Source: a virus
Reading direction: 5' to 3' (one strand)
DNA: 39,476 nt
IMG/VR virus record: IMGVR_UViG_3300008116_001193
Coordinates: 1 to 39,476 of that record
Shown: positions 16,734 through 36,743 of the stretch, piece after piece
Numbering within the stretch: the stretch's first letter is position 1
How the letters are laid out: each line of letters opens with the position of its first letter
Position numbers and translations under genes: made by a program
The notes under the pieces: model-generated
Told to the model about the DNA's origin: nothing
Seen by the model: only the letters and a program-made list of their open reading frames with translations
The model's database searches: none

Positions 16734-17837
16734 ATGAAGCCACGTTCGGCTAAAAACAAAGGTAAACGGTTACAAAATGCTATACGAGATATGATTTTGG
16801 AAAACTTCACACAGCTGGAACCAGATGATGTGGTTTCAACTTTGATGGGTGATAGTGGAACAGATATTAAGTTGTCACCTGCGGCGCGGAAGCTATTTCC
16901 TTACTCTCCAGAGTGCAAGAACCAAGAAAATCTAATCTCTCTTTTGTCGCAAATATTAGGTGATTTTAAACAGTTTGGAAATGGTGAGCACTATTTCCAA
17001 TGTCCGTTTTGCCATAATCATAAGAGAAAGTTCGCTGTCAATTTATTAAAAAATGTTTTTCATTGTTGGCATTGTGGGGCTAAGGGTCGTTCTTTAATAA
17101 CATTATTTAAGAGATTGGACGTATCCCCGTCCCAGATGAAGGAACTACGGTCACTATTGTCCGATGACCAAGTTCGCAATTACAAAGAAACAGAAGATGA
17201 AGTAACCGACCTACATCTTCCGCCGGGGTATAAACCACTCTGGATTCCAACCAAGAGTCTCCAGTATAAGCACGCTCTCCGATATTTAACGAAGAGAGGA
17301 ATCACAGGATATGATATTATCCGTTATCAAATGGGGTATACGATTGATGGTCCTTATGCCAATCGGATTATTATTCCTTCATATGACCAGAATAACAAGC
17401 TAAACTATTTCATCGCCCGTAGTTTCTATGATGACGGAATGAAGTATAAGAATCCACCAGTTTCGAAGAATGTGGTGATGTTCGAGAACCAAATAAACTG
17501 GAAGATGCCTTTGGTATTGTGTGAAGGTGTGTTCGATGCTATCGCAATTCGTCGAAACGCCGTACCTCTTTTGGGTAAGTTCATACCCAAAAAGCTGTTG
17601 AAGGAAATGGTCAAGAACAAAGTGAAAGATGTGTATGTCGTATTGGATGATGATGCGCTAAATGACGCACGAGAAATAGAACAAACGCTGAATGCATATG
17701 AAATGAATGTCAAGTTAGTAAACCTTGACAAGAAAGACCCTTCGGAGTTAGGTTTCAAAGATACATGGGAATGTATTGAACGAGGAACCGCAACAACCTT
17801 TAAAGACTATATTGGTGGCAGGTTACAAAATCTATGA
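16734..17837 (+). CDS. DnaG-type primase with a truncated PD-(D/E)XK nuclease at its N-terminus
   Basis: A 367-aa protein with three recognisable parts. Residues 1-65 (RSAKNKGKRLQNAIRDMILE; LEPDDVVSTLMGDSGTDIKL; FPYSPECKNQE) match the front half of a phage PD-(D/E)XK/resolvase-like nuclease, with D44 and E60-x-K62 as would-be catalytic residues. The rest of that fold is missing. Residues about 80-125 form a primase zinc-binding domain with C90PFC93 and C111WHC114, and its typical lead-in FGNGEHYFQCPFC. Residues about 255-330 form the TOPRIM domain (LCEGVFDAIAI with E264; VYVVLDDDAL with D305 and D307). The primase makes RNA primers at the fork, the role of T4 gp61. The stop overlaps the start of the Mre11-Rad50 gene (ATGA at 17834-17837), so both are co-expressed. 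The nuclease remnant is probably inactive. Confidence 0.82.
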   Translation: MKPRSAKNKGKRLQNAIRDMILENFTQLEPDDVVSTLMGDSGTDIKLSPAARKLFPYSPECKNQENLISLLSQILGDFKQFGNGEHYFQCPFCHNHKRKFAVNLLKNVFHCWHCGAKGRSLITLFKRLDVSPSQMKELRSLLSDDQVRNYKETEDEVTDLHLPPGYKPLWIPTKSLQYKHALRYLTKRGITGYDIIRYQMGYTIDGPYANRIIIPSYDQNNKLNYFIARSFYDDGMKYKNPPVSKNVVMFENQINWKMPLVLCEGVFDAIAIRRNAVPLLGKFIPKKLLKEMVKNKVKDVYVVLDDDALNDAREIEQTLNAYEMNVKLVNLDKKDPSELGFKDTWECIERGTATTFKDYIGGRLQNL

Positions 17838-20800
17838 AAATTACTGTACCATTTACGAAGTTACGAACAATTGCACATTGTGCCGACATTCATATTCGAC
17901 TCTTTAAGCGGCACGAAGAATATCGAGGAGCATTTACTACATTCTATGAGCAACTCCGTCAGACAGATTTGACCGATGGAGTGATTGTCGTTGCTGGTGA
18001 CATCCTTCATGCCAAGACCGATATGAGTCCAGAAATGGTGGAACTTGCCTCAGAGTTCCTCCGTAATCTTGCGGATATCGCTCCTACCTTTGTCATCGCC
18101 GGCAACCACGACCTCAATCTCTCCAATATGAACCGATTGGACAGCTTGACACCGATTATTAAGAATCTCAATCACCAAAATCTTCATTACTTCAAGCACT
18201 CCGACATCTACCAAGTTGCTGACATAGATTTCGCAGTATTCTCTATATTAGATGACCGTGAACAATGGCCCGATGTTCAAAACTGTCGGAAGAACGCAAA
18301 GAAAATTGCATTGTACCACGGACCTGTTCACGGCGCACAAACCGATGTCAAGTATGTTATTACCAATCGTCATGTAGGTGTGGATACATTTGAAGGATAT
18401 GATGTCGTGTTGCTTGGTGACATTCACAAGTATCAAGTTCTTCAAGAAAGTAATCCAGTTATCGTATACTCCTCGTCACTTATTCAACAGAATCACGGAG
18501 AGTCGGTTACTGGTCACGGTTGGTGCTTGTGGAATGTTGAAGATTGTACACATATATTCAAGGAACTTCCTAACGCATACGGTTATTACACATTGGAGTT
18601 GGTCGAAGGTAAGATTAACTTCCCAACTGATATGCCGAAGAATGTTCGACTTCGTTTGTTTACGGGGAATGCTGATACCTCACTCGTCAAGAAGACGACC
18701 GCCGCATTACGGAAACGGTATAATGTTATTGAGCTGAGTATCAACAAGAACCGATTCAATACATCCAGCCCGTCATATCGGAAGGGAACACATCTTACCA
18801 CGGATGTTACGAATCTTAATACACAGAACTCTCTCATCCAAGATTGGATTGAGCGGAATCACGAAACGATTGACGATGAGTTGATGAAAAAGATTATTGC
18901 GGTCAACACGAAGTTGAATGCACAAGTCAACCACGATGACCATTCACGGAACATTCACTGGCGTCCGTTAAAGTTTACGTTCTCTAATATGTTCTCATAT
19001 GGAGAGGGTAACGAAATCAATTTTGAACATATGCAAGGATTGCATGGTGTGTTTGCCCCAAACGCATCTGGAAAGAGTTCGTCGATGGACGCCCTCATCT
19101 TCTGCTTGTACGATAAGACCCCACGGGCATTCCGTGGTGACCATATTATGAACAATCGTAAGGACACATTTGAGTGTGAATTGAAGTTTGAAATTGACCA
19201 AGACATCTATTTCATTCGTAGAACTGGTACACGGAAAAAGACTGGCGATGTTAAGGTAGACGTATCATTCTGGAAGGAGAACGAAGATGGTACCCATACG
19301 TCATTAAACGGCGAAGACCGCCGGGACACTAACGCTAATATTCGTAACTATGTGGGTAGTTATGAAGATTTCGTACTGACTGCATTAAGTAGTCAAACGG
19401 CAAATGCACTCTTCATTGATAAGTCACATTCTGAACGAAAGGACTTACTTATTCAATTTATGGGATTGAATGTGTTTGATAAATTGTTTGATACAGCAAA
19501 CGAAGAGTGTAAGGAAATCTCTGGTGCGTTAAAGAAGTTCAAGAAAGTTGACTTTGACCAAGTAATCGCAGATGCTCAGACAAAGTTGGAAGATAATAAG
19601 GTCAAGCATGAGAAGGTCGAAACTACGATTACCGACCTTAAAGAAGAACGAGATATGTTGGATGAGAAGCTGAGGGAATGGCAAAACCAAAAGCGTCCAG
19701 TACCAAACATTACACTAGATATGGACGTATTGATTTCTACTTTGGCTAAGTCTGTTGACCAAATCTTAGAATATTCTGAGGGCAAGGTAGATGCGGAAAA
19801 GAGACTGGAAGCTATCAACACTAGTATTAAGGAACGTACGCAAGCAATAGTTGATGCAAACATTCCAGAACTTCGTCAGTCGGTGGAAGAGTATAATAAA
19901 CTTTCTGCCTTATTGAACAAGGGCAGTAGTGCGTTAAAGTTGACCACTTCGAAGGTTACTGAAAAAGAAAAGTTCAAGACCAAACTGGAAAGTTACAAGT
20001 ATAATCCAGATTGTAACGTCTGCGTAGAAAACAATAAGTCAATTATTGAGGATATGGAGTCGGTCACTCACGAATTGGTTGATTTATATGAACTTCAATC
20101 CAAACAAGAAGATGCGGTCAACGAAATTAAGCAACAGATGGAACCGTTGGTTGATAAGGTCAACCTCTGTGCACATTATGAGAAGTTACAAAACGAAGTC
20201 CAACAGTTCCAAAAGAAGGCAGGTACGGTTGAGTTGGAAATCCAGAAGTTGATTACTAATATTGAAAAGTGTGACCGTCAGCGGGAACAGACAGAAAAAG
20301 ATATTGAATTATTTAAGACAAACGAGGACAATATCAGACACAACAAAGAAATTGATATGCATATTGGTCACGTGGAATATGATATCAATGTAAGTAAGAA
20401 GGCGATGGACAAGTTGGAGAAGCAACTTCGTGAATTGCATGGAGAAATCAAGGTACTCGAAGCTACTAAGGCTGATGTTCTTAACCAAATTAAGGAAGCC
20501 GAAGAGCTTGAGGATACCTACGAGGCTTACAAGTATTATATGGAAGCCGTGGGTCGTGACGGGGTGCCATACGAACTGATGTCACGGGCAATCCCAGCAA
20601 TCGAATCTGAAATAAATAATATTTTAACACAGATTGCAGAGTTTACCATTTCTCTTGAAGTGGACGGGAAGAACATTCTTGGGAAGCTGAATTACGACCA
20701 CGAACGTATCTGGCCGTTGGAAAACTCGTCTGGTATGGAACGGTTTATTAGTAGTTTAGCTATCCGTGTGGCATTGTTGAACGCCTCAAATCTTCCAAAG

Positions 20801-20998
20801 TCCAACTTTATGATTATCGACGAAGGGTTGGGTACGTTGGATGCCGAAAACCTGACGGCTATGCACACAATGTTCAGTATCTTAAAGGGTCAATTCGATT
20901 TCTTAGTAGTTATCAGTCACTTGGACATCGCTCGGGATATGGTGGACAAGGTAATTGAAATCAAACGGGAAGACGGTTTCTCGTATATTAATGTCTAA
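17834..20998 (+). CDS. Single-chain Mre11-Rad50 (gp47-gp46) recombination nuclease
   Basis: A 1,054-aa fusion of the two subunits of the phage recombination nuclease, which resects DNA ends for recombination-dependent replication and degrades host DNA. Residues 1-370 are the Mre11/SbcD/gp47 phosphodiesterase with all metal motifs: HCADIHI, VVAGDILH, VIAGNHDLN, LYHGPVHG and LLGDIHKYQ. From about 374 the Rad50/SbcC/gp46 ATPase begins (LKFTFSNMFSYGEGNEINF), with Walker A APNASGKSS (K414), a long coiled coil, a zinc hook C727xxC730, signature SSGMERF, Walker B NFMIIDEGLGTLD (D996, E997) and H-loop VVISHLD. T4 encodes these as two genes of about 339 and 560 aa. No stop or in-frame re-initiation site is seen at the join. 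It overlaps the primase stop and ends in a hairpin. Confidence 0.92.
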   Translation: MKITVPFTKLRTIAHCADIHIRLFKRHEEYRGAFTTFYEQLRQTDLTDGVIVVAGDILHAKTDMSPEMVELASEFLRNLADIAPTFVIAGNHDLNLSNMNRLDSLTPIIKNLNHQNLHYFKHSDIYQVADIDFAVFSILDDREQWPDVQNCRKNAKKIALYHGPVHGAQTDVKYVITNRHVGVDTFEGYDVVLLGDIHKYQVLQESNPVIVYSSSLIQQNHGESVTGHGWCLWNVEDCTHIFKELPNAYGYYTLELVEGKINFPTDMPKNVRLRLFTGNADTSLVKKTTAALRKRYNVIELSINKNRFNTSSPSYRKGTHLTTDVTNLNTQNSLIQDWIERNHETIDDELMKKIIAVNTKLNAQVNHDDHSRNIHWRPLKFTFSNMFSYGEGNEINFEHMQGLHGVFAPNASGKSSSMDALIFCLYDKTPRAFRGDHIMNNRKDTFECELKFEIDQDIYFIRRTGTRKKTGDVKVDVSFWKENEDGTHTSLNGEDRRDTNANIRNYVGSYEDFVLTALSSQTANALFIDKSHSERKDLLIQFMGLNVFDKLFDTANEECKEISGALKKFKKVDFDQVIADAQTKLEDNKVKHEKVETTITDLKEERDMLDEKLREWQNQKRPVPNITLDMDVLISTLAKSVDQILEYSEGKVDAEKRLEAINTSIKERTQAIVDANIPELRQSVEEYNKLSALLNKGSSALKLTTSKVTEKEKFKTKLESYKYNPDCNVCVENNKSIIEDMESVTHELVDLYELQSKQEDAVNEIKQQMEPLVDKVNLCAHYEKLQNEVQQFQKKAGTVELEIQKLITNIEKCDRQREQTEKDIELFKTNEDNIRHNKEIDMHIGHVEYDINVSKKAMDKLEKQLRELHGEIKVLEATKADVLNQIKEAEELEDTYEAYKYYMEAVGRDGVPYELMSRAIPAIESEINNILTQIAEFTISLEVDGKNILGKLNYDHERIWPLENSSGMERFISSLAIRVALLNASNLPKSNFMIIDEGLGTLDAENLTAMHTMFSILKGQFDFLVVISHLDIARDMVDKVIEIKREDGFSYINV

Positions 20999-21039: not shown

Positions 21040-22854
21040 ATGGCAAAGACAAAAAAGACTATACAATTAAAAAATTTAGCACAATATGATGTATTGATTG
21101 AAGATAGATCTGCGTCTTCTACATATTTTCAAGTAACGAATCTACCACCATCTTTTACTGGTGGTAGAAATTCGTTTTTACTGGCAGGGTCATCCGCATT
21201 AAAATCTGCGTCTAATATTCAAATAGAAATAATAGACGCAGATGGGATACCTATTTTCCAAAATCCAATACAAAAATATGTACAAGGAAATTCTAGATTA
21301 GTTTCCGTAGAAGTGACAGAAAACACAGCTGTTGGGTTTGCTACCATCGTTATATTGGGGCAGGCTACAGTATTACCGAATGGCCAACCAGTACCACCGG
21401 ATTGGCAAAATTCATATAATGTTCGTTGGACTAAACAAATACTAGTAGAGCGAAACTTAAGAAATTCCTCTCCACTTATATTAAGAGACACACCAACAGT
21501 GTTTTCTGAAGAAAATAGATTATATAGTGTATTAACTTCTTCATTTGTAACCGCAAGTACACCGTTTACAGCAAGTTTGACTCCTACACTATATTCTGGG
21601 TTTCAAATTGGATATACAATTAAAGCAGAGTCACCAACGGTGTTTTCGGAGGATTACTTTGGTGGGTATATAACTGGCTCTATGATTATAGATGGAATAA
21701 GCGCCAGTCTGTATCTACCGATAACAGATGTACTGAATACAACTACAGCATTTAGCACTGGTGAATTAATTAAAACAACAGATGGTCGAATTGTAGATAA
21801 AATTTATTTACGGAGTGGTAGCTATACTACATCATTATTTGGGTCATCATCTGCAATAAAAACCACAGCTCAGTTAGTATATAATACATCAAGTATAAAG
21901 GATAATCATATTCCTGTGTCGTATGCAAAACTTCGTTTAGTAAATTTGAACACAGTAAGCGGTGAAATATTTAAATTCAAAGTGTACAGTAAAGTTTCTA
22001 CTAATCTATCCGATTATAAATTAGTAGCGGAAGTACCGATAGCTACATCTGAATTATTGGTGACCAGTTCTATTCGTGGTAATTTACCAATAGGTGATTT
22101 ATATGTAGTACCCACAGCATCAAATTGGTATTCTGATAGACTAGAAACTAGTTCAAATGCGATATATACAATATCAGGATCTGCTGCTTACTATAACCCA
22201 ACAGTTACTAGTATAAATCCGCCAATTACAATGTCTATTACTGATGATGTATTATTGCGGTCACTTCGTTCAGTAATACCGACATTTAACAATACAAATT
22301 ATGCAGGATATGTATCGGCAAGTGGATACTTTATAGGAAATAAAAAATCGGTACAACTATTCCCAACAACAGAATATACCTTGCAATTCGATGCGGTTTA
22401 TAAAAAGACAGTTGGAGCGGTAAATTTAACTGGTGTGGACTCAAAGGTTGATATTTATCTTATAGGGGTAGAAGGCACTAAAGTTATTGACAACAATCCT
22501 TTAGGACAAAAAATCGGTACATTAACTTTACCGAGCGGAGCAGAAACTTATTGGTACCAAGACCAGCAACTTAACTTTACCCCACAATTAGCTGCGGCTG
22601 GAAATGTGGGTATACGATTCGTTGTAAGCAATGGATTCTGGTATTTTTCTGAAATATCATTAAAACCAGCATCGGATAGACTATTTGCACCAGATGAAGC
22701 ACAAATTTTAGTACCAAACACAGAATATTATAATGAATTATTACAACATAAGATAGAATTTTTTGATATCAATAGTAATTCAACAGATATAGCTATAGAA
22801 TCTATTCCTACCTTCTTTACTGGCTCGAATATTGATTTGGGTACAATACCATGA
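21040..22854 (+). CDS. Probable tail/virion structural protein, 604 aa
   Basis: A 604-aa beta-rich protein with Ser/Thr-rich composition similar to the other virion proteins and no catalytic motif. The N-terminus is KKTIQLKNLAQYDVLIEDRS. A conserved-looking central block reads SYNVRWTKQILVERNLRNSS and PLILRDTPTVF. The C-terminal third contains ATEYTLQ-like jelly-roll strands (TTEYTLQFDAVYKKTVG; QDQQLNFTPQLAAAGNVGIR; FWYFSEISLKPAS), a pattern like carbohydrate-binding modules of fibre proteins. It follows a hairpin boundary and its stop overlaps the next gene (ATGA at 22851). The role in tail or fibre is inferred; the exact family is not recognised. Confidence 0.6.
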   Translation: MAKTKKTIQLKNLAQYDVLIEDRSASSTYFQVTNLPPSFTGGRNSFLLAGSSALKSASNIQIEIIDADGIPIFQNPIQKYVQGNSRLVSVEVTENTAVGFATIVILGQATVLPNGQPVPPDWQNSYNVRWTKQILVERNLRNSSPLILRDTPTVFSEENRLYSVLTSSFVTASTPFTASLTPTLYSGFQIGYTIKAESPTVFSEDYFGGYITGSMIIDGISASLYLPITDVLNTTTAFSTGELIKTTDGRIVDKIYLRSGSYTTSLFGSSSAIKTTAQLVYNTSSIKDNHIPVSYAKLRLVNLNTVSGEIFKFKVYSKVSTNLSDYKLVAEVPIATSELLVTSSIRGNLPIGDLYVVPTASNWYSDRLETSSNAIYTISGSAAYYNPTVTSINPPITMSITDDVLLRSLRSVIPTFNNTNYAGYVSASGYFIGNKKSVQLFPTTEYTLQFDAVYKKTVGAVNLTGVDSKVDIYLIGVEGTKVIDNNPLGQKIGTLTLPSGAETYWYQDQQLNFTPQLAAAGNVGIRFVVSNGFWYFSEISLKPASDRLFAPDEAQILVPNTEYYNELLQHKIEFFDINSNSTDIAIESIPTFFTGSNIDLGTIP

Positions 22855-25742
22855 AACATTTGACTAACGAACAACTTAGTTTCTTATTGCAATTTCCAAC
22901 TGGACACAGACTCCAAGTTGGAGCATTGAGCTATATTGAAAAACATAAAATTCAAGATGTTGATATTTTGTTTGAAGCAACCAAAGCTACACAAAATATT
23001 ATTGATGTATTTAATAAGAAATTAGAAGTGTTGGACGAAAAGAAACGAAAGAAGTGTACCATATACCCAACTGATTCTGGAAATAAGATTCGTAAAAAGT
23101 GTAAACAAGCACACACCTGGGGTATTCATTACGCCCCTGTATGGAATCGATATGTTCAACCGGAACCAACCACACCAGACACGGGTACTGATGGTGGCGC
23201 GGATGTAGGTGGTGGAGAAACTGGTGGTGATGCTGGTGGTATAGCAGAACGAAAGGGAATCGCTGGGTCACGATTCACATTCCCAATGTCCATCGGTCCA
23301 GAAAATGATTATCAACAAAAACCACAAGACGAAGCAATGTCTAGTACGGAACGGATGCGGAAATTCAACAAGCGTCATCCTGAAAAAGTTCGTCAGTACT
23401 TGAAAAAGACCCAAGACGACCGTGTAGCTCGTAACCGTGACCGCCGTAAGGCAGTTGAAAAGCACGGTGAAGCTAAGATGAAAAACCACGATGTGCATCA
23501 TCCAAATGGTGCAAAGAATGGTAATTGGAAGTTAGCAAAGAAAGACCACGGGCGAGATAAGAAGAACGAGAATATTGAATATGTGTATTTGTCTGAACTA
23601 GCCGAAGGGGTTGTGCCAAATGGTAGTTGGACTCTTATATACGAGGGTGGTGCCGCAGGACATATGGCACACCCATACGAAGATGATTCATTGTCTTTTA
23701 CAGATGTAAAGGATATGGTTACCCGTGGACTCGTTGGTGATTTAGGTGCAGAAGAACCAGTGACAGAAAAACTTGACGGTCAAAATATTATGTTTACCGT
23801 TCGAGATGGTCGAGTATATTTCGCTCGTAATAAAGGACAAGTCAAAAACAAAGGTAAAAATGCGCTAGACACGGCTGGTATACGTCAGATGTTTGCTGGT
23901 CGTGGTGATATTGAAAAGGCGTTTACTGGTGCAGCAGAAGACTTACAAAATGCCATAGACGCACTTCCAGAAGAAGAACGTAATAAGATGTTCTCTGATG
24001 GTTCGAAGTTTATGAATGTCGAAATAGTATTTCCGGATACCAAGAACGTTATCCCATATGACAAATCTGTATTGGTGTTTCACGGAACCGTTGAATATGA
24101 CGACGAAGGTAACGAAATCAAGCGGTCAGTCGAAGATGGTCGTGAATTATCTGACCAACTTACTAAGGTTAATGCGCAAAAGCAAAAAACGTTTGGTATC
24201 TCGGGTCCAAAGACTATTAGTTTTAGTGATGCACAAACTGTTGAAAATAAAAATGCATTAAAAAAGATTGGAGCACGTTTAACTCAACTTCAAAAAGAAT
24301 ATGGTTTAGATGACAAGTCTACCATTGAAGATTATAAGACAAAATGGTGGGAAGATAAGATTATTCAAATCTCACAAGAAACCGGACTCGAATTCACTAA
24401 ACAAGAATTTGATGGTATGGTTCGTCGTTGGGCATTAGGCGATAAAAAGTTTAAGGTCGCTGATATTGAAGACCCAGAAAAGAAAAAATGGTTCCGTCAG
24501 TTTGAAGGAAGTGAACTAAAAGCAACACAACGTGAAGCAGTCCGTCCGCTGGAAAGTGTATTCTTACAAGTGGGTGCTATGTCACTTAAGCGGGTTACCG
24601 ATTTCTTATCAGCAAATAACCCAGAACTTGCGAATAAGTTGAAAGCTGAAGTATTGGATACCATTAAACAAATTCAGCAAACGGGTGATACAAACAAATT
24701 AGCTGCGTTACAAATTCAATTAGAACGTTTACAAGATATTGGAATGGACAATATCGTTCCAACCGAAGGTATGGTCTTTATGTATAAGGGTAAGCCATAC
24801 AAGTTCACTGGGACATTCGCTCCTGTCAACCAAATTTTGGGTACGTTAAAGTTTGATAAGGGTGAAGCAAAGTTAGTTGACGAACCAAAGGAAACTCCAA
24901 AAGAAGAACCAACTACAAAACCAGTACAAGGTGAACAACGTACCGTTGCTATCTTTACTGGACGTTTCCAACCATTCCATGCTGGTCACTATAGTATTTA
25001 TAAGTCGATGGTAGATAAGTTTGGTAAGGAGAATGTATATATCGCATCAAGTGATAAGACAGAGGCTGGTAAGTCTCCGTTTAAATTTAGTGATAAAAAA
25101 GAAATAATGACACAGATGTTCGATATTCCAGAAGATATGGTAGTTCAAGTCAAGAATCCATATGCACCAAAAGAAATTTTGGAAAAGCTTCCACCAGAGA
25201 CAGTATATGTAACTGCGGTCAGCCAAAAGGACTCAGAACGGTTGGGTGGTAAGTATTTCCAACCATATGATGAGAAGGGTCCAAAGAAAGGATTTGCCGA
25301 CCAAGGATATTTTATGGTCGCTCCAGAATTGGAGGTTGATATTGATGGGAAGAATATAAGTGGTACACAACTTCGTGCAATCTTTGGTAACCCAAACATT
25401 ACCGATGAAGTCAAGCAGGAAATCTTCGCAAAGGTGTATGGTAAATTCGACCAAGATATATTCAACAAAGTGGTCAAAACAACTACTAAGTCAGAAGAAG
25501 AATTAAAGATTACCAAGCAATTTGCAGAACCAGAAAAAGCAAAACAAAAACCAGAAGCTCCAATAGAAAAGAAACCACGAGTTAAAAAACCAGTGGATAC
25601 CACTACAAGTGATGATGCATCACAATATCAGCCAGGCGAAACGTGGCAAACTGCTGGTGGGAACTTCGGTGGTAAAAATAAAAAGAATCAAATTAAGTAT
25701 TTCGGGTCAGAAGAAAAAGCTAAGGCATTTGCAACCAAGTGA
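22851..25742 (+). CDS. 963-aa multidomain protein: HNH-like, KxDG ligase-like and NMN-adenylyltransferase-like domains
   Basis: Three domains are visible. Residues about 175-235 are basic and contain HDVHHPNG...WKLAKKDHGRD, an HNH-like metal-binding pattern. Residues about 255-660 contain GGAAGHMAHPYED followed by motifs in the order seen in covalent nucleotidyltransferases (DNA/RNA ligases, capping enzymes): EKLDGQN (motif I, K307), KFMNVEIVFP (III, E391), PTEGMVF (IV, E639) and KPYKFTG (V, K651), with about 240 residues inserted between III and IV. I recall this block as a conserved phage family (possibly DUF6267). Residues about 700-890 are a nucleotidylyltransferase with FTGRFQPFHAGH (H710, H713) and ISGTQLR (836-842), as in NadM/NMNAT enzymes. 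A Pro/Lys linker ends in QPGETWQTAGG. An NAD- or RNA-repair-related role is plausible but unproven. Confidence 0.8.
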   Translation: MKHLTNEQLSFLLQFPTGHRLQVGALSYIEKHKIQDVDILFEATKATQNIIDVFNKKLEVLDEKKRKKCTIYPTDSGNKIRKKCKQAHTWGIHYAPVWNRYVQPEPTTPDTGTDGGADVGGGETGGDAGGIAERKGIAGSRFTFPMSIGPENDYQQKPQDEAMSSTERMRKFNKRHPEKVRQYLKKTQDDRVARNRDRRKAVEKHGEAKMKNHDVHHPNGAKNGNWKLAKKDHGRDKKNENIEYVYLSELAEGVVPNGSWTLIYEGGAAGHMAHPYEDDSLSFTDVKDMVTRGLVGDLGAEEPVTEKLDGQNIMFTVRDGRVYFARNKGQVKNKGKNALDTAGIRQMFAGRGDIEKAFTGAAEDLQNAIDALPEEERNKMFSDGSKFMNVEIVFPDTKNVIPYDKSVLVFHGTVEYDDEGNEIKRSVEDGRELSDQLTKVNAQKQKTFGISGPKTISFSDAQTVENKNALKKIGARLTQLQKEYGLDDKSTIEDYKTKWWEDKIIQISQETGLEFTKQEFDGMVRRWALGDKKFKVADIEDPEKKKWFRQFEGSELKATQREAVRPLESVFLQVGAMSLKRVTDFLSANNPELANKLKAEVLDTIKQIQQTGDTNKLAALQIQLERLQDIGMDNIVPTEGMVFMYKGKPYKFTGTFAPVNQILGTLKFDKGEAKLVDEPKETPKEEPTTKPVQGEQRTVAIFTGRFQPFHAGHYSIYKSMVDKFGKENVYIASSDKTEAGKSPFKFSDKKEIMTQMFDIPEDMVVQVKNPYAPKEILEKLPPETVYVTAVSQKDSERLGGKYFQPYDEKGPKKGFADQGYFMVAPELEVDIDGKNISGTQLRAIFGNPNITDEVKQEIFAKVYGKFDQDIFNKVVKTTTKSEEELKITKQFAEPEKAKQKPEAPIEKKPRVKKPVDTTTSDDASQYQPGETWQTAGGNFGGKNKKNQIKYFGSEEKAKAFATK

Positions 25743-25748
25743 GGTTAT

Positions 25749-26111
25749 ATGTTTAAAAATGAAGAAGCATTAAATGATGTTCGTAAGAAAGTAGCAGAAA
25801 AGTTAAATAAAGACGAAACAGAGCTTCGTCGTCAAGGTAAGTGGAAAGATTTCGAACAAAAAATGATGCTACGCAATTATATCTCAGCGGCAAAAGACAG
25901 ACTCCAAGAATTACAACATTACCTCGACAATCTCAGTAAACCAGAATATCTGCTAATGAATGAGCATGAAAAAACTGTATTGATGTTTGAAAAGTGGGAT
26001 ATTGATTTAGACACTGTAAGAAAAGATTTAACGGATGAAATTGAATTAATCAAAAAAAATTTGGCAGAAACCATAGAACAGTACGGTACTGGAGAAGATA
26101 ATGAAACTTAA
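25749..26111 (+). CDS. Coiled-coil hypothetical protein, 120 aa
   Basis: A 120-aa highly charged helical protein predicted to be largely coiled coil (EALNDVRKKVAEKLNKDETE; AKDRLQELQHYLDNLSKPEY; DLTDEIELIKKNLAETIEQY). No motif or family recognised. GAGG precedes ATG 25749 by about 6 bases. The last 11 bases overlap the start of the spanin-like gene at 26101, so both may be translated together. It could be an assembly or lysis-related small protein. Confidence 0.6.
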   Translation: MFKNEEALNDVRKKVAEKLNKDETELRRQGKWKDFEQKMMLRNYISAAKDRLQELQHYLDNLSKPEYLLMNEHEKTVLMFEKWDIDLDTVRKDLTDEIELIKKNLAETIEQYGTGEDNET

Positions 26112-26613: not shown

Positions 26614-28203
26614 ATGAACGCAACATCACAACAGTTACGTGACAAAATTAAAGAAGAGTTTAAGAAATGTGCAGTAGACCCGGCATACTTCTTATCACGG
26701 TATTCATACATTCAACACCCAATCCGTGGTCGGGTGTTGTTTGATTTATACCATTATCAGAAAGATGCACTGAAAGATTTTGAGAACTGTGATTATAATA
26801 TCGTTCTGAAAGGTCGTCAGATTGGTATTTCCACATTAGTCGCGGGATACTCATTGTGGTTGATGCTATTTCACAAAGATAAAAACATTCTTGTTATCGC
26901 AACCAAGCAAGAAACTGCAAAGAACTTGGTGACAAAGGTTAAGTTCATGCATCAAAATCTTCCAGTATGGTTACGGGGTAACGTCATTACAGACAATAAG
27001 TTATCATTACAATTTGGTAACGGGTCACAGATTAAAGCAGTTGCCTCCAGTCCCGACGCCGGCCGTTCTGAAGCACTGTCTCTTCTCATTCTTGACGAAG
27101 CTGCATTTATTGACGCAGCAGATATTATTTGGACCGCAGCATCCAGTACATTGTCAACGGGTGGTAAAGCAATTCTATTGTCTACGCCAAACGGTGTTGG
27201 TAACTTCTTCCATAAAATGTGGCAACAAGCAGAGACAAATGCCAATAATTTTAATACTATCTTATTAGATTGGAAAGTTCACCCAGAACGTGACCAAGCA
27301 TGGCGTGACCGCCAAACAGAACTGATGGGTGAACTACAAGCAATTCAAGAACATGATGCATCATTCATATTCTCCGGTAATACGGTTATCCCTGCAGAAA
27401 TCATAGAGTTTTATAAATCGTCGTTTGTTCAAGAACCAATATCTAAAGAAGGATTTGATGGAAATCTTTGGATATGGGAATATCCTAGTCCGTCTAAAAC
27501 TTATATTGTTTGCGCAGACGTTGCCCGCGGAGATGGTGAGGATTATTCAACTTTCCATGTAATTGATGTAGAAACCTCTACCCAAGTCGCAGAGTACAAG
27601 GGAAAAGTAGAAACTAAGCAGTTTGGAAATATGTTGGTGTCTATCGCAACACAGTATAATGACGCACTCCTTATCCCAGATAACAGTAGTATTGGATGGA
27701 ACGCAATTCAGCAGATTATTGACCGTGGGTATCGTAATCTGTTCTATATGTCCAGAGACTTACAATATGTAGATGTTGAACATCAATTGAATAGAAAGTA
27801 TTTGAAAGAAGATAAGATGAGTTCATTGGTGCCTGGGTTTATGATATCCCAAAGAACCAGGCCATTGATTATCGCCAGATTAAAAGAATATATGTTAGAT
27901 AATTCATTTACTATTCGGTCAAGTCGAATGGTTGCAGAGTTGGAAACATTTATTTGGAAGAATGGCCGGCCAGAAGCATTGGGCGGGTATAATGACGACT
28001 TGGTATTAGCACTTTGTATAGGTCTGTGGGTACGAGACACCGCCTTAAGATTACGCCAAGAGGGCATAGAATTGACCAAATTAGCGTTAGATAACACAAA
28101 ATATCAGATGGGAAGTATGGTATATACAGACAAGAATTTAACTCATAATCCATATGAGATGCAAATTGGTCAGGAAAAAGAGAATTTACGGTGGTTACTG
28201 TAA
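26614..28203 (+). CDS. Large terminase subunit (gp17-like)
   Basis: A 529-aa packaging motor with ATPase and headful nuclease. The ATPase has a Q-rich deviant Walker A (K66-G-R-Q-I-G-I-S-T74), in which the lysine sits at the start of the motif rather than at the GKT position. Walker B is LLILDEAAF (D161, E162), and motif III is ILLSTPNG. The C-terminal RNase H-like nuclease has ADVARGDG (D302), PDNSSIGW (D356) and YNDDLVLAL (D461, D462). T4 gp17 is 610 aa. No small terminase subunit is recognisable next to it. ATG 26614 follows GAGG. The portal gene lies 4 kb downstream, separated by a block of accessory genes. Confidence 0.93.
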   Translation: MNATSQQLRDKIKEEFKKCAVDPAYFLSRYSYIQHPIRGRVLFDLYHYQKDALKDFENCDYNIVLKGRQIGISTLVAGYSLWLMLFHKDKNILVIATKQETAKNLVTKVKFMHQNLPVWLRGNVITDNKLSLQFGNGSQIKAVASSPDAGRSEALSLLILDEAAFIDAADIIWTAASSTLSTGGKAILLSTPNGVGNFFHKMWQQAETNANNFNTILLDWKVHPERDQAWRDRQTELMGELQAIQEHDASFIFSGNTVIPAEIIEFYKSSFVQEPISKEGFDGNLWIWEYPSPSKTYIVCADVARGDGEDYSTFHVIDVETSTQVAEYKGKVETKQFGNMLVSIATQYNDALLIPDNSSIGWNAIQQIIDRGYRNLFYMSRDLQYVDVEHQLNRKYLKEDKMSSLVPGFMISQRTRPLIIARLKEYMLDNSFTIRSSRMVAELETFIWKNGRPEALGGYNDDLVLALCIGLWVRDTALRLRQEGIELTKLALDNTKYQMGSMVYTDKNLTHNPYEMQIGQEKENLRWLL

Positions 28204-28220: not shown

Positions 28221-28255
28221 AGTAGTGTCTTTATATACTATTTTTGAGGCAAAGT

Positions 28256-28954
28256 ATGAAAAAAGAAGAACTTAAACAAATGATTCGGGAAGAACTCAAA
28301 TCAGTATTAAGTGAACAGGCCTATCAATGGTGGATGAAACCAGCTGAAGCAGAAACGCCGGACGCCCATTTAAATCCAAGTCAAGTTCACGAAGATGTCG
28401 AAGATTCTGTAAATGAAGATGAATACGATAAAAAGCGTGACCAACACCCATATTGGGGGCAAACTGGTCGTCCATATACCCCAAAATCATACGGTAAACC
28501 AAAAACTCCGGCAAAGAGTTTTCGCCAAGTATTTACAAGAGCTTTGGTTGCAACAAAAATCAAATATAAAGATGCTGAAGGAAAGGAACACGAAGCTACG
28601 GTGTCATCTTTATTGAAGTATCCAAAAGACCATCCTGGATATAAAGCAGCTGCCAGATTATATGCATCTAGTATGGCACGAGCACCAAAAGATGAAGGTG
28701 TATGTGAAGGAGAGGGGTGTTTAGACGAAAAGTCAGTTCCCCAACCATACAACCGTAAAAGTGCTCGTAAAATGAGTAGATCTCAAGTAGAACTTCGTAA
28801 AAAAATTGGTCAAGCTATGATGCGAGATGAAAAGAAGGTCAGTAAGTTCCGTAAAAAGTATGGTGACGAATGGAAAGACTATCTTTGGGCATCAGCATCA
28901 GCCGCAGCATTCAGACAAAGTGGTGGTAAAAGTGATGATAAGCGGAAAAAATAA
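28256..28954 (+). CDS. Hypothetical basic protein, 232 aa
   Basis: The start chosen is ATG 28256 because GAGG lies at 28246-28249, seven bases before it. An in-frame TTG at 28244 has no such site. The 232-aa protein begins with a charged helix (MKKEELKQMIREELKSVLSE), like those at 3262 and 35049, followed by an acidic linker and a basic domain (YKAAARLYASSMARAP; MSRSQVELRKKIGQAMMRDE; YGDEWKDYLWASASAAAFRQ). No catalytic motif is recognised. Two cysteines lie close together (VCEGEGCLDE). The stop overlaps the next ATG. It may be a head-associated protein, given its place between terminase and portal. Confidence 0.6.
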   Translation: MKKEELKQMIREELKSVLSEQAYQWWMKPAEAETPDAHLNPSQVHEDVEDSVNEDEYDKKRDQHPYWGQTGRPYTPKSYGKPKTPAKSFRQVFTRALVATKIKYKDAEGKEHEATVSSLLKYPKDHPGYKAAARLYASSMARAPKDEGVCEGEGCLDEKSVPQPYNRKSARKMSRSQVELRKKIGQAMMRDEKKVSKFRKKYGDEWKDYLWASASAAAFRQSGGKSDDKRKK

Positions 28955-30141
28955 TGAAGTATTCATCATTTTTTAATTTTGAACAATACCACCATCCTCA
29001 CAAAAGACACGACCCACCTGGGTCAGAAGATGCAGATGTGAATAATGATGGTAAAGTTGACAAAAATGACAAGTATATAATGGCAAAACGCCGGTTATAC
29101 AGACAATATCAAGCAGCACAAAAAGATAAAAAAGCTACAGAATTTTCTACACCAAAGTTGGAGAACAACATGATTAGATTGTCAGCACTAGTGAATCTAC
29201 AGGCATTAAAAGAAGAATCACACGAAGAACCAACACCAGCTCCAACTGTAGCTGTTGATAAAAAGTCACGGGTTGAAATGAAGCTTAAGAAGCTTAAAGA
29301 AATGCAAATGACCCCAGACCAAGAAAAGAAAGTTGATGAACTCTTGGCTCAATATGAAGAATTGTCTGCTAAACAAAAACAACTTGATGTAGACAAAGAC
29401 GGCAAGATTGAAGGTGATGATTTAGCAAAACTTCGTGCAGGTAAAACTGACGAAAAGTTAGATGCTGTCGGTCAAGAAGATGGTGATGTTGATAATGACG
29501 GAGATAAAGACTCATCTGATAAGTACTTACAAGCTCGTCGGGATACTATTGGTAAGGCAATGAAGAGTGAAGGTAGTGGTGAAGACCACGAAGCATCTAT
29601 GGCAAACTCTACTTTAGATTCAATTATCAAGCACGCAACCGAACTTAAGGGTAAGATTGGAATGGAAGAAAAGGACATTCCAGCATGGATTCAAGACCAC
29701 ATCGCAGTTGCTGAAAATAATCTTGACCAAGCAAATACCAGTTATCACGAATATGGCGATGAAGAAATGACTGATAAGCCAGTTGACCAAGATATGGCAG
29801 CTATGGCAGAATCAGTTAACGAAGGTGCTCCCGAAGGATGGGAAAAGACCGTTAAAGCAATGAAAAAACACAAGGAAATTGATAATCCTTGGGCACTTGC
29901 AAACTGGATGAAGAAGAAAGGATATAATCCAAAAAAAGAAGAAACCGAAGAAGCAGTAACTATAAAACCACAAGGTGGGTTAGCAGCTGCTATCTCGGCA
30001 TATAAAAATACACCAACACATAGTTCAAAGCAACATGTACAAGTGATGCCAGCACACAAACCAGGTGACACTTGGAAGACTGACAGTGGTAAGACAGCAA
30101 AGAAAAATTCAGATGGAACTATTTCTTACACAGTAAATTAA
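28954..30141 (+). CDS. Protein with three EF-hand/dockerin-like calcium loops, 395 aa
   Basis: A 395-aa acidic protein with three loops of the D-x-[DN]-x-DG type: DVNNDGKVDKND (residues 28-39), DVDKDGKIEGDD (from 145) and DVDNDGDKDSSD (from 178). Each is followed by a short helix such as KYIMAKRRLYRQY or KYLQARRDTIGKA. This matches calcium-binding EF-hand or dockerin-type loops, where the Asp/Asn side chains bind Ca2+. The rest is charged helix and flexible linker. The C-terminal 35 residues (KPGDTWKTDSGKTAKKNSDG) resemble the C-terminus of the 963-aa protein at 22851. No enzyme motif is visible. It could be a calcium-dependent structural or scaffolding protein. It overlaps the previous stop by one base. 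Confidence 0.65.
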   Translation: MKYSSFFNFEQYHHPHKRHDPPGSEDADVNNDGKVDKNDKYIMAKRRLYRQYQAAQKDKKATEFSTPKLENNMIRLSALVNLQALKEESHEEPTPAPTVAVDKKSRVEMKLKKLKEMQMTPDQEKKVDELLAQYEELSAKQKQLDVDKDGKIEGDDLAKLRAGKTDEKLDAVGQEDGDVDNDGDKDSSDKYLQARRDTIGKAMKSEGSGEDHEASMANSTLDSIIKHATELKGKIGMEEKDIPAWIQDHIAVAENNLDQANTSYHEYGDEEMTDKPVDQDMAAMAESVNEGAPEGWEKTVKAMKKHKEIDNPWALANWMKKKGYNPKKEETEEAVTIKPQGGLAAAISAYKNTPTHSSKQHVQVMPAHKPGDTWKTDSGKTAKKNSDGTISYTVN

Positions 30142-30142
30142 T

Positions 30143-30499
30143 ATGGTAGCCAAATTTATTTCTCTTTTACTTTCTAGTAGACAACAAGCACACATCTTTC
30201 ATCTTCAAACTTCTTCATATGCTGCACATAAGGCGTTACAAGAATATTATGAAGGAATCGTGGATTTAGTTGACGCTTATGTAGAAGCTTATCAAGGTCG
30301 ATATGGTATTCTCAAAGGATATATGCCAACTAATACTATTTTAGAAGATGACTCAGTAGTTAGCTATTTTACAGGTCTTCAAAAGTTTGTAGACGAAACC
30401 CGTGGTCAACTTCCACAAGACGGTGAACTTAATAACACTGTTGATGAAATTGCCGCAGTAATATCTAGTACGATTTATAAACTCAAATTCCTCAAATAA
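30143..30499 (+). CDS. Ferritin/Dps-like fold phage protein (DUF5856-type), 118 aa
   Basis: A 118-aa helical protein. Residues 10-50 read SSRQQAHIFHLQTSSYAAHK then YYEGIVDLVDAYVEAYQGRY. This His-x2-His-x(8)-His plus acidic helix pattern is what I remember for the phage family DUF5856, thought to adopt a Dps/ferritin-like four-helix fold. A standalone Dps has about 160 aa, so this is a short relative. Whether it binds metal cannot be told, although His and Glu/Asp residues at suitable spacing are present. It starts two bases after the preceding stop. The role in the infected cell is unknown. Confidence 0.6.
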   Translation: MVAKFISLLLSSRQQAHIFHLQTSSYAAHKALQEYYEGIVDLVDAYVEAYQGRYGILKGYMPTNTILEDDSVVSYFTGLQKFVDETRGQLPQDGELNNTVDEIAAVISSTIYKLKFLK

Positions 30500-35538: not shown

Positions 35539-36033
35539 ATGAAGAACTTATTAGTTGAATATAATGTCATTGAATATGGAAAGGATTTATTAGCTGAAGT
35601 ATTACAACGTGAAGCTGGATTGTATAAAGAAAACTTTGTAGTCCAACGCCGTGCACTTGGGGAATTAGACCATCCAGAAAGTCCAGTAGTTAATCTTAAA
35701 AATGTATGCTGCAATGTGACTGAACTATGGTTTGAAGGCCAAGATGTTCGTGGAAATATTGAAATTCTTTCCACTCCATCAGGTAACATTGTCCGTGAAC
35801 TCATCAAGAATAACATTCGTCTTGGTGTATCTTCTCGCGGAATGGGTTCAGTAAGTCCAATCGGTGAAAATACCGTAGAAGTTGGTGATGACTTCGCACT
35901 TATCTGTTTTGATATCGTCAGTAACCCAAGTACCCACGGTGCATTCATCAACGAAAGTAAGAAGGCACAAATCGTTACTCAATACTCACGTATCGACTCT
36001 CTTGTATACGATTTCCTCAGTGAAGTAAAATGA
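35539..36033 (+). CDS. Prohead protease (gp21-like)
   Basis: A 164-aa serine protease of the T4 gp21 type (herpesvirus-assemblin-like fold), which cleaves scaffold and capsid precursors during head maturation. Its catalytic motifs are visible: ALGELDHPES with H45, LGVSSRGMGSV with S98/S99, and FDIVSNPSTHGAF with D125. In the family the first two provide His and Ser of the active site. T4 gp21 is 212 aa. ATG 35539 follows the previous stop by one base and the TGA stop overlaps the next start (ATGA at 36030-36033). It lies upstream of scaffold and capsid as in T4, but two extra genes intervene. Confidence 0.9.
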   Translation: MKNLLVEYNVIEYGKDLLAEVLQREAGLYKENFVVQRRALGELDHPESPVVNLKNVCCNVTELWFEGQDVRGNIEILSTPSGNIVRELIKNNIRLGVSSRGMGSVSPIGENTVEVGDDFALICFDIVSNPSTHGAFINESKKAQIVTQYSRIDSLVYDFLSEVK

Positions 36034-36512
36034 AACTAGCGAAGGAATTTGTTAAGTTTACCATTAAAGAATTGGGATTAAAATCATTACCTAAGAGCAT
36101 TAAGTTCGAAGGTGATGATTATTCTGCGCAACATTTAACATTTGGAACTTACAATCCTTCTACTGATGAAATCGTTGTAGTCAAGGGGCAACGTCATCCT
36201 ATCGATGTATTACGTACGTTAGCTCACGAATTGGTGCATCACAAACAACGTGAAGATGGACAAGAATTGAATGGCGAAGATGGGTCAAATACAGAAAACG
36301 AAGCAAATGCAAAAGCTGGTAAGATTCAATCTATCCTAAGTGCAGCAAAAACTGGTAAACCAGCAAAGATTGATGAAACCTACGTAGACCAATATACTGC
36401 CAAGTTATTAATTACAGTGGCACACAATCTATCCCCAAAGAATAGAACAGAGTTTTACAACGAATCCATCGATAAGATGGTAGAATTAGCATATAAATTA
36501 GTTACTCGGTAA
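36030..36512 (+). CDS. HExxH zinc metallopeptidase-like protein, 160 aa
   Basis: A 160-aa protein with a zinc-metallopeptidase motif, LRTLAHELVHHKQ (H66-E67-L-V-H70), followed about 20 residues later by TENEANAKAG, whose Glu could be the third zinc ligand, as in gluzincin/SprT/ImmA-like enzymes. The N-terminal half contains SIKFEGDDYSAQHLTFGTYN and STDEIVVVKGQRHPIDV, a strand pattern seen in small metalloproteases. Overlap with the prohead protease stop means the two are co-translated. It could cut a head protein, a host factor or the peptidoglycan-associated proteome. No signal peptide is present, so it acts inside the cell or is packaged. Confidence 0.75.
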   Translation: MKLAKEFVKFTIKELGLKSLPKSIKFEGDDYSAQHLTFGTYNPSTDEIVVVKGQRHPIDVLRTLAHELVHHKQREDGQELNGEDGSNTENEANAKAGKIQSILSAAKTGKPAKIDETYVDQYTAKLLITVAHNLSPKNRTEFYNESIDKMVELAYKLVTR

Positions 36513-36524
36513 CCCGGAGGTAGT

Positions 36525-36743
36525 ATGTACGTTGAAGTAAAAGGTGATAAACAATCTGATTTAGAACGAGCACTCCAACAGTTCGTTAAGCAAGTCAAAA
36601 AAGCAGAATTGATGGAAGATTTAAAGAAGAAAGAATTCTATTTGAAGAAGTCCAAGAGACTCCAAAAGAAGAGCCAAGACGCCCTCCGCAGAAGAAAGCG
36701 TGAAGAGAGTAAGGCGCAGAAGAAGAACAATAATACATTTTAA
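36525..36743 (+). CDS. rpsU: Ribosomal protein bS21 homologue
   Basis: A 72-aa very basic protein matching small-subunit ribosomal protein bS21 along its length. The pattern DLERALQQFVKQVKKAELME then DLKKKEFYLKKSKRLQKKSQ and DALRRRKREES parallels the cellular order: ALRRFKR-x2-EKAG, then the RRREFYEKPT-like segment and a Lys/Arg-rich helix. Cellular bS21 is about 70 aa, so the gene is complete. bS21 sits near the anti-Shine-Dalgarno end of 16S rRNA and aids initiation. Phage-encoded bS21 has been described in SAR11-type and large uncultured phages. The gene has a strong site (GGAGG) and ends before an intrinsic terminator, placing it at the end of the portal-protease transcript. Confidence 0.85.
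   Translation: MYVEVKGDKQSDLERALQQFVKQVKKAELMEDLKKKEFYLKKSKRLQKKSQDALRRRKREESKAQKKNNNTF

What the first reader, a model, noticed from the sequence alone, without database searches (positions are those of the whole stretch)
22851..25742. 963-aa fusion of HNH-like, ligase-like (KxDG) and NMN-adenylyltransferase-like domains
Seen: HHPNG...KDHGR, EKLDGQN (K307), NVEIVF (E391), TEGMVF (E639), YKFTG (K651), GRFQPFHAGH and ISGTQLR in one chain. Known: KxDG marks lysine-AMP/GMP forming enzymes (ligases, capping enzymes); HxGH and ISxTxxR mark NMN/nicotinate or cytidylyl transferases. Inference: one enzyme that makes a dinucleotide such as NAD and another that transfers a nucleotide to nucleic acid or protein would form a single-chain NAD-linked RNA/DNA end-processing, capping or repair factor. 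The 240-residue insert between motifs III and IV is not typical of ligases, so the ligase reading could be wrong.
Basis: partly seen in the sequence, partly recalled or inferred. Interest (0 to 1): 0.8.

Follow-up and report, generated by a model that had tools for sequence, protein, structure and literature searches.

The report
Phage ligase-like enzyme fused to NAD-maker
A virus related to phage T4 carries one long protein that joins an RNA-ligase-like enzyme to an enzyme of the kind that makes the cofactor NAD; the same pairing recurs, as a fusion or as neighbouring genes, across hundreds of aquatic phages, so the two activities very probably work together in a job nobody has yet described.

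Summary
Residues 251-675 fold confidently in silico (pLDDT 90). Structure search of that model returns almost only RNA, tRNA and DNA ligases and capping enzymes. The ligase motifs (K307, E391, E639, K651) are invariant in 59 diverse relatives. Residues 694-900 belong, by sequence and fold, to the NMN-adenylyltransferase group. The 'HNH' stretch is conserved but matches no nuclease profile.

This is not a one-off fusion. At least 591 contig stretches in IMG/VR encode the ligase-like core. In 95 of 109 distinct ORFs the adenylyltransferase sits in the same chain, before or after the core. Nearly all other cases are truncated or split ORFs; in two loci it lies in the next ORF or gene. A distant cousin, Pfam DUF6267 ('unknown function'), sits beside or is fused to a 'cytidyltransferase' in many cultured cyanophages. 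Published virion proteomics finds such NMNAT-like proteins inside cyanophage particles.

My reading is a new, obligately paired family of covalent nucleotidyltransferases. It most likely processes RNA ends, with the partner domain supplying or recycling NAD. The pairing and folds are well supported; catalysis, NAD coupling and substrate are inferred. Novelty: new variant of a known kind.

The parts
22851..25742 (+). 963-aa fusion gene (whole)
   Evidence: relatives
22959..23153 (+). N-terminal module (aa 37-101), found in 28 of 109 distinct ligase-like ORFs; function unknown
23331..23585 (+). HNH-like conserved stretch (aa 161-245), consensus NHDVHHPNG..G.W.La.KDHGRD; in 37 of 109 distinct ORFs
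   Evidence: no Pfam nuclease match
23619..24860 (+). ligase-like covalent nucleotidyltransferase core (aa 257-670)
   Evidence: AF2 model pLDDT 89.9, pTM 0.85; Foldseek; weak Pfam RNA_ligase in 13 of 18 members
23661..23684 (+). HMAHPYED motif (H271, H274, D278) preceding motif I, shared with DUF6267 (HLEHxED)
23766..23786 (+). motif I EKLDGQN, candidate nucleotidylated lysine K307
   Evidence: invariant 59/59 here and 11/11 in DUF6267
23823..23837 (+). ARNKG, motif Ia-like (R326 invariant)
24015..24029 (+). motif III NVEIV (E391 invariant)
24075..24101 (+). motif IIIa-like VFHGTVEYD (H411 invariant)
24129..24740 (+). nearly all-helical insert (aa 427-630) between motifs IIIa and IV
   Evidence: secondary structure
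24765..24779 (+). motif IV EGMVF (E639, G640 invariant)
24798..24812 (+). motif V YKFTG (K651 invariant)
24939..25481 (+). NMN-adenylyltransferase-like HxGH domain (aa 697-877)
24960..24989 (+). GRFQPFHAGH nucleotide-binding motif
25356..25376 (+). ISGTQLR motif
25626..25733 (+). C-terminal PGETW module (aa 926-961), a small module in 27 ORFs of the related loci, 20 of the distinct ligase-like ORFs among them
21040..22854 (+). upstream 604-aa gene overlapping the fusion gene by 4 bases; homologue found in 43 of 124 loci, many of which are short at the 5' side
25749..26111 (+). small downstream gene (120 aa), homologue in 107 of 124 loci
26614..28203 (+). terminase large subunit, homologue in 109 of 124 loci, downstream of the fusion gene

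Best explanation
The protein is a two-headed nucleotidyltransferase of T4-like phages. Head 1 (aa 257-670) is a new family of the covalent nucleotidyltransferase (RNA ligase / DNA ligase / capping enzyme) superfamily; K307 would carry AMP. It has no OB fold after motif V, which points to the RNA-ligase branch rather than DNA ligases or cappers. Head 2 (aa 697-877) is an NMN-adenylyltransferase-type enzyme (NMN + ATP to NAD + PPi). The two heads are obligately paired, so they serve one pathway. The most likely pathway is repair or modification of RNA ends (tRNA above all) during infection, with head 2 making or regenerating the NAD used by head 1 or by NAD-using end-cleaning enzymes. Delivery with the virion is likely for at least part of the family. 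Shown: the gene, the folds in silico, the invariant motifs, the pairing, the late-gene context. From published mass spectrometry: NMNAT-like relatives in virions. Inferred: catalysis, substrate, NAD coupling, timing. My confidence: paired active nucleotidyltransferases about 0.8; RNA-end processing about 0.4; NAD directly feeding the ligase head about 0.2. The confidence given is for the whole statement.
For: Core fold: model pLDDT 89.9; PDB neighbours are archaeal RNA ligase, T4 Rnl1, Trl1 tRNA ligase, Rnl2, Naegleria RNA ligase, then DNA ligases and guanylyltransferases. 13 of 18 members give a weak Pfam RNA_ligase hit, best E 0.003. Ligase motifs invariant. NMNAT: Pfam over cut-off; profile against PDB best = M. 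jannaschii NMNAT 2.7e-8, then M. thermoautotrophicum NMNAT; Foldseek best = NadM NMNAT 4.8e-6, archaeal NMNAT, NadD, with PPAT lower. Pairing: 95 of 109 distinct ligase-like ORFs carry an HxGH domain, in either order, one with two copies; L036 has it in the next ORF and L039 in the next gene. Same pairing in DUF6267 phages: fused in S-PM2, overlapping genes in P-HM1, S-CAM9, S-WAM1, S-SSM5 and others. RNA-repair-type company in the same chain: P-loop kinase (AAA_33/zeta type) in 9 ORFs; CCA-adding/poly(A)-polymerase head in 2 (6.5e-30 in L120). Late context upstream of terminase. Virion: cytidylyltransferase/NMNAT-like proteins in S-SZBM1 (PMC9146016), S-CREM2, S-CBWM1 and S-SCSM1 particles (PMC10665884).
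Against: No Pfam ligase family passes its cut-off, and Foldseek E-values to PDB are only 3e-3 and weaker, with TM-scores near 0.2 because of the insert. Nothing shows that head 1 acts on RNA. Relatives also carry Nudix, ParB-like, peptidase-like and HNH-like modules, so fusion partners are not specific to RNA repair. The window protein does not match the LigA adenylation family, and that family matched none of the fusion-bearing IMG/VR contigs tested. In S-SZBM1 the DUF6267 protein itself (SSZBM1_141) is not among the virion proteins listed, only its partner. In cultured cyanophages the pair sits near gp41/mazG, not at the terminase.
Confidence: 0.4

Rival explanations
1. NAD-supply and counter-defence factor: the HxGH domain rebuilds NAD+ after host NADases act, and the ligase-like domain adenylates a nicotinamide precursor or acts as a sensor; RNA is not involved.
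For: NMNAT-type fold. Known phage NAD-salvage proteins fuse the HIGH domain to Nudix (NadM) or P-loop kinase (NadR) (PMC9503650, PMC7824862), and some relatives here carry Nudix or a P-loop kinase in the same chain as the HxGH domain.
Against: The fused kinase matches AAA_33/zeta-toxin families, not the kinase family of NadR as I know it. Ligase motifs I-V are all kept, which a sensor would not need. CCA-adding domains do not fit NAD salvage.
Confidence: 0.2
2. Nucleic-acid ligase stand-in: the core/DUF6267 family is the ligase that cyanomyoviruses were thought to lack, sealing DNA nicks, with the partner recycling NMN to NAD.
For: gp30 DNA ligase has no homologue in cyanomyoviruses (PMC2984593). 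No PF01068, PF09414 or PF01653 match in S-PM2, P-HM1 or HTVC008M. DUF6267 sits in the gp41/mazG/gp61 replication cluster.
Against: Two fusion-bearing contigs (G001, G003) carry a separate DNA ligase, and jumbo phages with the core carry true RNA ligases, one also a LigA-type ligase. No OB fold, which DNA ligases use to close on DNA.
Confidence: 0.12
3. Cargo polyprotein: independent enzymes strung together only so that they are packaged in the head and released by the prohead protease; the two nucleotidyltransferases do not cooperate chemically.
For: Domain order and accessory modules vary widely. Small modules are shared with neighbouring late genes. A peptidase-like module is stand-alone in the window and fused in L014, L055, L061 and L063. 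NMNAT-like proteins found in virions (PMC10665884).
Against: The core and the HxGH domain alone are constant while all other modules come and go, and they stay together in many cultured cyanophages as a gene pair.
Confidence: 0.18
4. Sugar or lipid nucleotidyl transfer: the HxGH domain is a cytidylyltransferase for phosphosugars or glycerol phosphate and the ligase-like domain modifies a surface or capsid component.
For: Cyanophage partner genes are annotated cytidyltransferase, and cyanophage HIGH enzymes were assigned to NDP-sugar synthesis (PMC7824862).
Against: Both sequence and fold of the domain sit with NMNATs. The annotation is generic.
Confidence: 0.1

Closest known systems
Pfam DUF6267 (PF19782; PHROG 455; T4-GC 71) of cyanophages and pelagiphages
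   Same: Same motif order (HxxHPED, KxDG, N..Y, H, EG, K, N), 14 co-aligned conserved columns against 1-8 in 21 scrambled controls, Foldseek match of the core model to an S-PM2 protein (E 1.3e-5), and the same partnership with an HxGH enzyme.
   Different: No significant sequence-profile match (hhalign probability 1%; no Pfam hit). Motif III reads QGD rather than E. It lies near gp41/mazG rather than at the terminase.
T4 RNA ligase 1 / archaeal RNA ligase / Trl1 ligase domain (covalent nucleotidyltransferases)
   Same: Predicted fold and motifs I, III, IV, V in the right order.
   Different: Nearly all-helical insert of about 200 residues between IIIa and IV; no separate C-terminal domain after motif V; below Pfam cut-off.
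Archaeal-type NMN adenylyltransferase and phage NadM / NadR
   Same: GRFQPFHxGH and ISxTxxR, fold, some relatives with Nudix or P-loop kinase.
   Different: Fused or paired with a ligase-like enzyme; NCBIfam NMNAT models score far below their cut-offs.
Rnl2-type phage RNA ligases with N-terminal HNH domains (PMC7824862)
   Same: Nuclease-like motif ahead of a ligase-like domain in a phage protein.
   Different: The stretch here matches no HNH profile and the core is not Rnl2 by profile.

Membership tests
Covalent nucleotidyltransferase superfamily (ligase/capping) | KxDG motif I with invariant lysine | tested here: met
   59/59 sequences
Covalent nucleotidyltransferase superfamily (ligase/capping) | Motif III Glu, motif IV EG, motif V Lys in order | tested here: met
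   E391, E639-G640, K651 invariant
Covalent nucleotidyltransferase superfamily (ligase/capping) | Nucleotidyltransferase fold | tested here: met
   Foldseek neighbours almost all ligases or cappers, E 3e-3 and weaker
Covalent nucleotidyltransferase superfamily (ligase/capping) | Lysyl-NMP intermediate | not testable with these tools
   needs protein
Pfam RNA_ligase (PF09414) | Score over curated cut-off | tested here: not met
   13.6 vs 27 bits for the window; best member E 0.003
DNA ligase / capping enzyme | OB-fold domain with motif VI after motif V | tested here: not met
   core ends about 15-20 residues after motif V with one helix; in other domain orders the core is at the very C-terminus
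NAD-dependent ligase LigA | DNA_ligase_aden profile with its NAD-binding Ia part | tested here: not met
   no match in Pfam scan of the protein or in the fusion-bearing IMG/VR contigs searched
NMN adenylyltransferase (HIGH superfamily) | GRFxPxHxGH and ISxTxxR, Rossmann-like fold | tested here: met
NMN adenylyltransferase (HIGH superfamily) | Equivalog-level score | tested here: not met
   best 31.9 bits vs cut-off 449
NMN adenylyltransferase (HIGH superfamily) | NMN as substrate | not testable with these tools
   needs assay
HNH nuclease | HNH profile match | tested here: not met
   no HNH family in Pfam at E up to 5 for four members
DUF6267 | Pfam/profile match | tested here: not met
DUF6267 | Shared conserved columns and fold | tested here: met

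The most novel reading that the evidence does not exclude
A virion-delivered RNA ligase or capping enzyme that takes AMP from NAD+ and regenerates that NAD+ in the same chain from the released NMN and ATP: the first NAD-driven RNA-end enzyme with a built-in cofactor recycler, present as a fusion or gene pair in much of the T4-like phage population of oceans and lakes.
Probability: 0.15. Interest if true: 0.88.

Novelty: new variant of a known kind. Interest (0 to 1): 0.62.

Why it matters
It gives a testable enzymatic identity to an abundant and wholly unannotated phage family (at least 591 contig stretches) and, by extension, to DUF6267, found in 336 cultured- or deposited-phage records at 80% coverage or more and in no paper of the open library. 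It links two active fields, phage RNA repair and phage NAD metabolism, through a physical pairing that I found in no paper searched. It also reopens the question whether cyanomyoviruses, said to lack gp30 ligase homologues (PMC2984593), in fact carry a ligase-type enzyme.

Tried and rejected
(1) HNH nuclease: no profile match; kept only as 'HNH-like'. (2) Sequence-profile link of the core to PDB ligases: failed with 18 and with 59 sequences (the SMC3 hits align mainly the helical part and vanish); the link rests on structure. (3) hhalign of the core against DUF6267: not significant; joint alignment with scrambled controls used instead. (4) DNA-ligase replacement for the whole family: two fusion-bearing contigs have a separate DNA ligase. 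(5) Cellular origin: the one scan of 84,980 species genomes gave only six loci, all in MAG contigs; where enough sequence is held most show the same phage gene order, so I read them as viral. (6) P-SSM2 genes beside terminase as homologues: translated and not related by eye. (7) Capsid-targeting N-terminus (MNSLTKYLVEGILNE-type in L024-L035, MKFLKSYEEFLNE in L039): suggestive of a T4 capsid targeting sequence from memory, absent from the window protein, not tested.

Full report
CHECK OF THE OBSERVATION. The ORF at 22851-25742 (+) encodes 963 aa with an ATG start. The gene overlaps the upstream 604-aa gene by 4 bases. The window is a 39.5-kb virus record of T4-like type, with terminase, portal and prohead protease genes.

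THE LIGASE-LIKE CORE. A first scan found 36 viral loci encoding relatives. The one scan of 84,980 prokaryotic genomes gave only six, all in MAG contigs. A 59-sequence alignment keeps K307, D309, G310, R326, E391, E639, G640, F643, K651, T653 and G654 without exception. AlphaFold2 gives pLDDT 89.9 and pTM 0.85. Foldseek against the PDB returns RNA ligases (Palaeococcus, T4 Rnl1, T4 Rnl2, Naegleria), fungal Trl1, then DNA ligases and guanylyltransferases, nearly without interruption for the first 42 ranks. E-values are modest (3e-3 and weaker) and only the core aligns. Pfam RNA_ligase is the commonest weak hit among members, 13 of 18, best E 0.003. The long stretch between motifs IIIa and IV is a nearly all-helical insert. 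There is no OB fold after motif V, which by established knowledge of the superfamily sets it apart from DNA ligases and capping enzymes.

THE HxGH DOMAIN. Residues 697-877 match Pfam CTP_transf_like above its cut-off. A 54-sequence profile finds archaeal NMN adenylyltransferases first (M. jannaschii 2.7e-8). The model (pLDDT 92.6) matches NadM and archaeal NMNATs first, NadD next, phosphopantetheine adenylyltransferases lower. NCBIfam equivalog scores are far below cut-off, so NMN as substrate is likely but unproven.

THE PAIRING IS A RULE. Scanning the 124 loci then held, 95 of 109 distinct ligase-like ORFs have an HxGH domain in the same chain: after the core (window type), before it (most marine members), or both (L067). 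The remainder are almost all contig-edge or frameshift fragments. In L036 the HxGH domain is in the next ORF. In jumbo phage L039 the core is a stand-alone gene and the next gene carries the HxGH domain. No other module is constant. Optional ones are HNH-like (37), ParB-like (13), P-loop kinase (9), peptidase-like (4), Nudix (3) and CCA-adding/poly(A) polymerase (2).

CULTURED RELATIVES. Foldseek against viral models matched a Synechococcus phage S-PM2 protein (E 1.3e-5). I take it to be S-PM2d138 from its length (591 aa), motifs and HxGH domain. Its N-terminal part is Pfam DUF6267, unknown function (E 1.6e-111), and its C-terminal part an HxGH domain. In P-HM1, S-CAM9, S-WAM1, S-SSM5, S-MbCM6 and S-SZBM1 the DUF6267 gene touches or overlaps a separate 'cytidyltransferase' gene. 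HTVC008M has them two genes apart. S-CRM01, S-H34, S-CAM7 and one ACG-2014f record have a DUF6267 gene without an annotated partner next to it, so the pairing is less strict there. Profile comparison of the two families is not significant. A joint alignment nevertheless places the invariant residues of both together (HxxH, KxDG, N, Y, H, EG, K, N): 14 shared columns against 1-8 in 21 scrambled controls (a MAFFT test on one third of the core sequences, so indicative only).

CONTEXT. In the window family the gene lies just upstream of a conserved small gene (107 of 124 loci) and the terminase (109 of 124). In cyanophages the pair lies near gp41 and mazG. Published virion proteomics lists the cytidylyltransferase SSZBM1_140 in CsCl-purified S-SZBM1 particles (PMC9146016), and a later paper reports NMNAT-like proteins in S-CBWM1, S-SZBM1, S-SCSM1 and, as cytidylyltransferase, in S-CREM2 (PMC10665884). 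The DUF6267 gene of S-SZBM1 is SSZBM1_141 and is not in that table. High expression with carry-over into the preparation is a caveat the second paper itself appears to raise.

DOES IT REPLACE A LIGASE? Cyanomyoviruses were reported to lack gp30 DNA ligase homologues (PMC2984593). Consistent with that, S-PM2, P-HM1 and HTVC008M give no match to three ligase families. But two fusion-bearing contigs carry a separate DNA ligase and jumbo phages with the core have true RNA ligases, so the family is not simply their DNA ligase.

MECHANISM. Shown in silico: two nucleotidyltransferase folds with intact catalytic motifs, held together across a large family. Inferred: K307 forms a lysyl-AMP and head 1 acts on RNA ends. 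The lack of an OB fold, RNA-ligase neighbours, and kinase and CCA-adding partners favour RNA; Nudix, peptidase-like and ParB-like partners do not. Inferred with less support: head 2 makes or regenerates NAD for head 1 or for NAD-using end-cleaning enzymes. The LigA profile is not matched, so direct use of NAD by head 1 is speculative.

NOVELTY. Known phage HIGH-domain fusions are to Nudix (NadM) and P-loop kinase (NadR) (PMC9503650, PMC7824862). Known phage RNA-ligase fusions include HNH (PMC7824862). I found no paper that names DUF6267 or describes this pairing; the library is open-access only and one key review (10.1093/nar/gkw722) was not held, so prior description cannot be excluded.

Noticed in passing
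17834-20998: One 1054-aa chain carries a calcineurin-like phosphoesterase (12-200) and an SMC-type ATPase part (388-497): what looks like T4 gp47 and gp46 fused.
   Followed up: no
36525-36743: Phage-encoded ribosomal protein bS21 (Pfam Ribosomal_S21, 34.9 vs 27 bits); Microcystis phage Mel-JY01 has one at the same place after the prohead protease.
   Followed up: partly
28244-28954: This ORF carries a small module (..TALxYDxxHPAxKLA-like) that recurs, up to twice or three times, in many relatives of the fusion protein.
   Followed up: partly
28954-30141: Dockerin/EF-hand repeats in a late phage protein (Dockerin_1 27.1 vs 22.9 bits) with a C-terminal PGDTW stretch like the C-terminus of the fusion protein.
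   Followed up: no
36030-36512: Small metallopeptidase-like gene (HELVHH) after the prohead protease; the same module is fused inside relatives L014, L055, L061 and L063.
   Followed up: partly
L120:829-6555: 1909-aa chain joining ParB-like, CCA-adding/poly(A) polymerase (PF01743, 6.5e-30), HxGH and ligase-like domains; L084 also carries the CCA-adding part.
   Followed up: partly
L125:7122-9845: Flavobacterium phage immuto protein with an HxGH-like domain (GGFKPPHLAH) plus, by eye, a pol-beta-like nucleotidyltransferase N-terminus and a metallopeptidase-like part; no ligase-like core.
   Followed up: partly
30143-30499: Match to PHROG 858 'starvation-inducible transcriptional regulator' (E 8.8e-26) between terminase and portal.
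   Followed up: no
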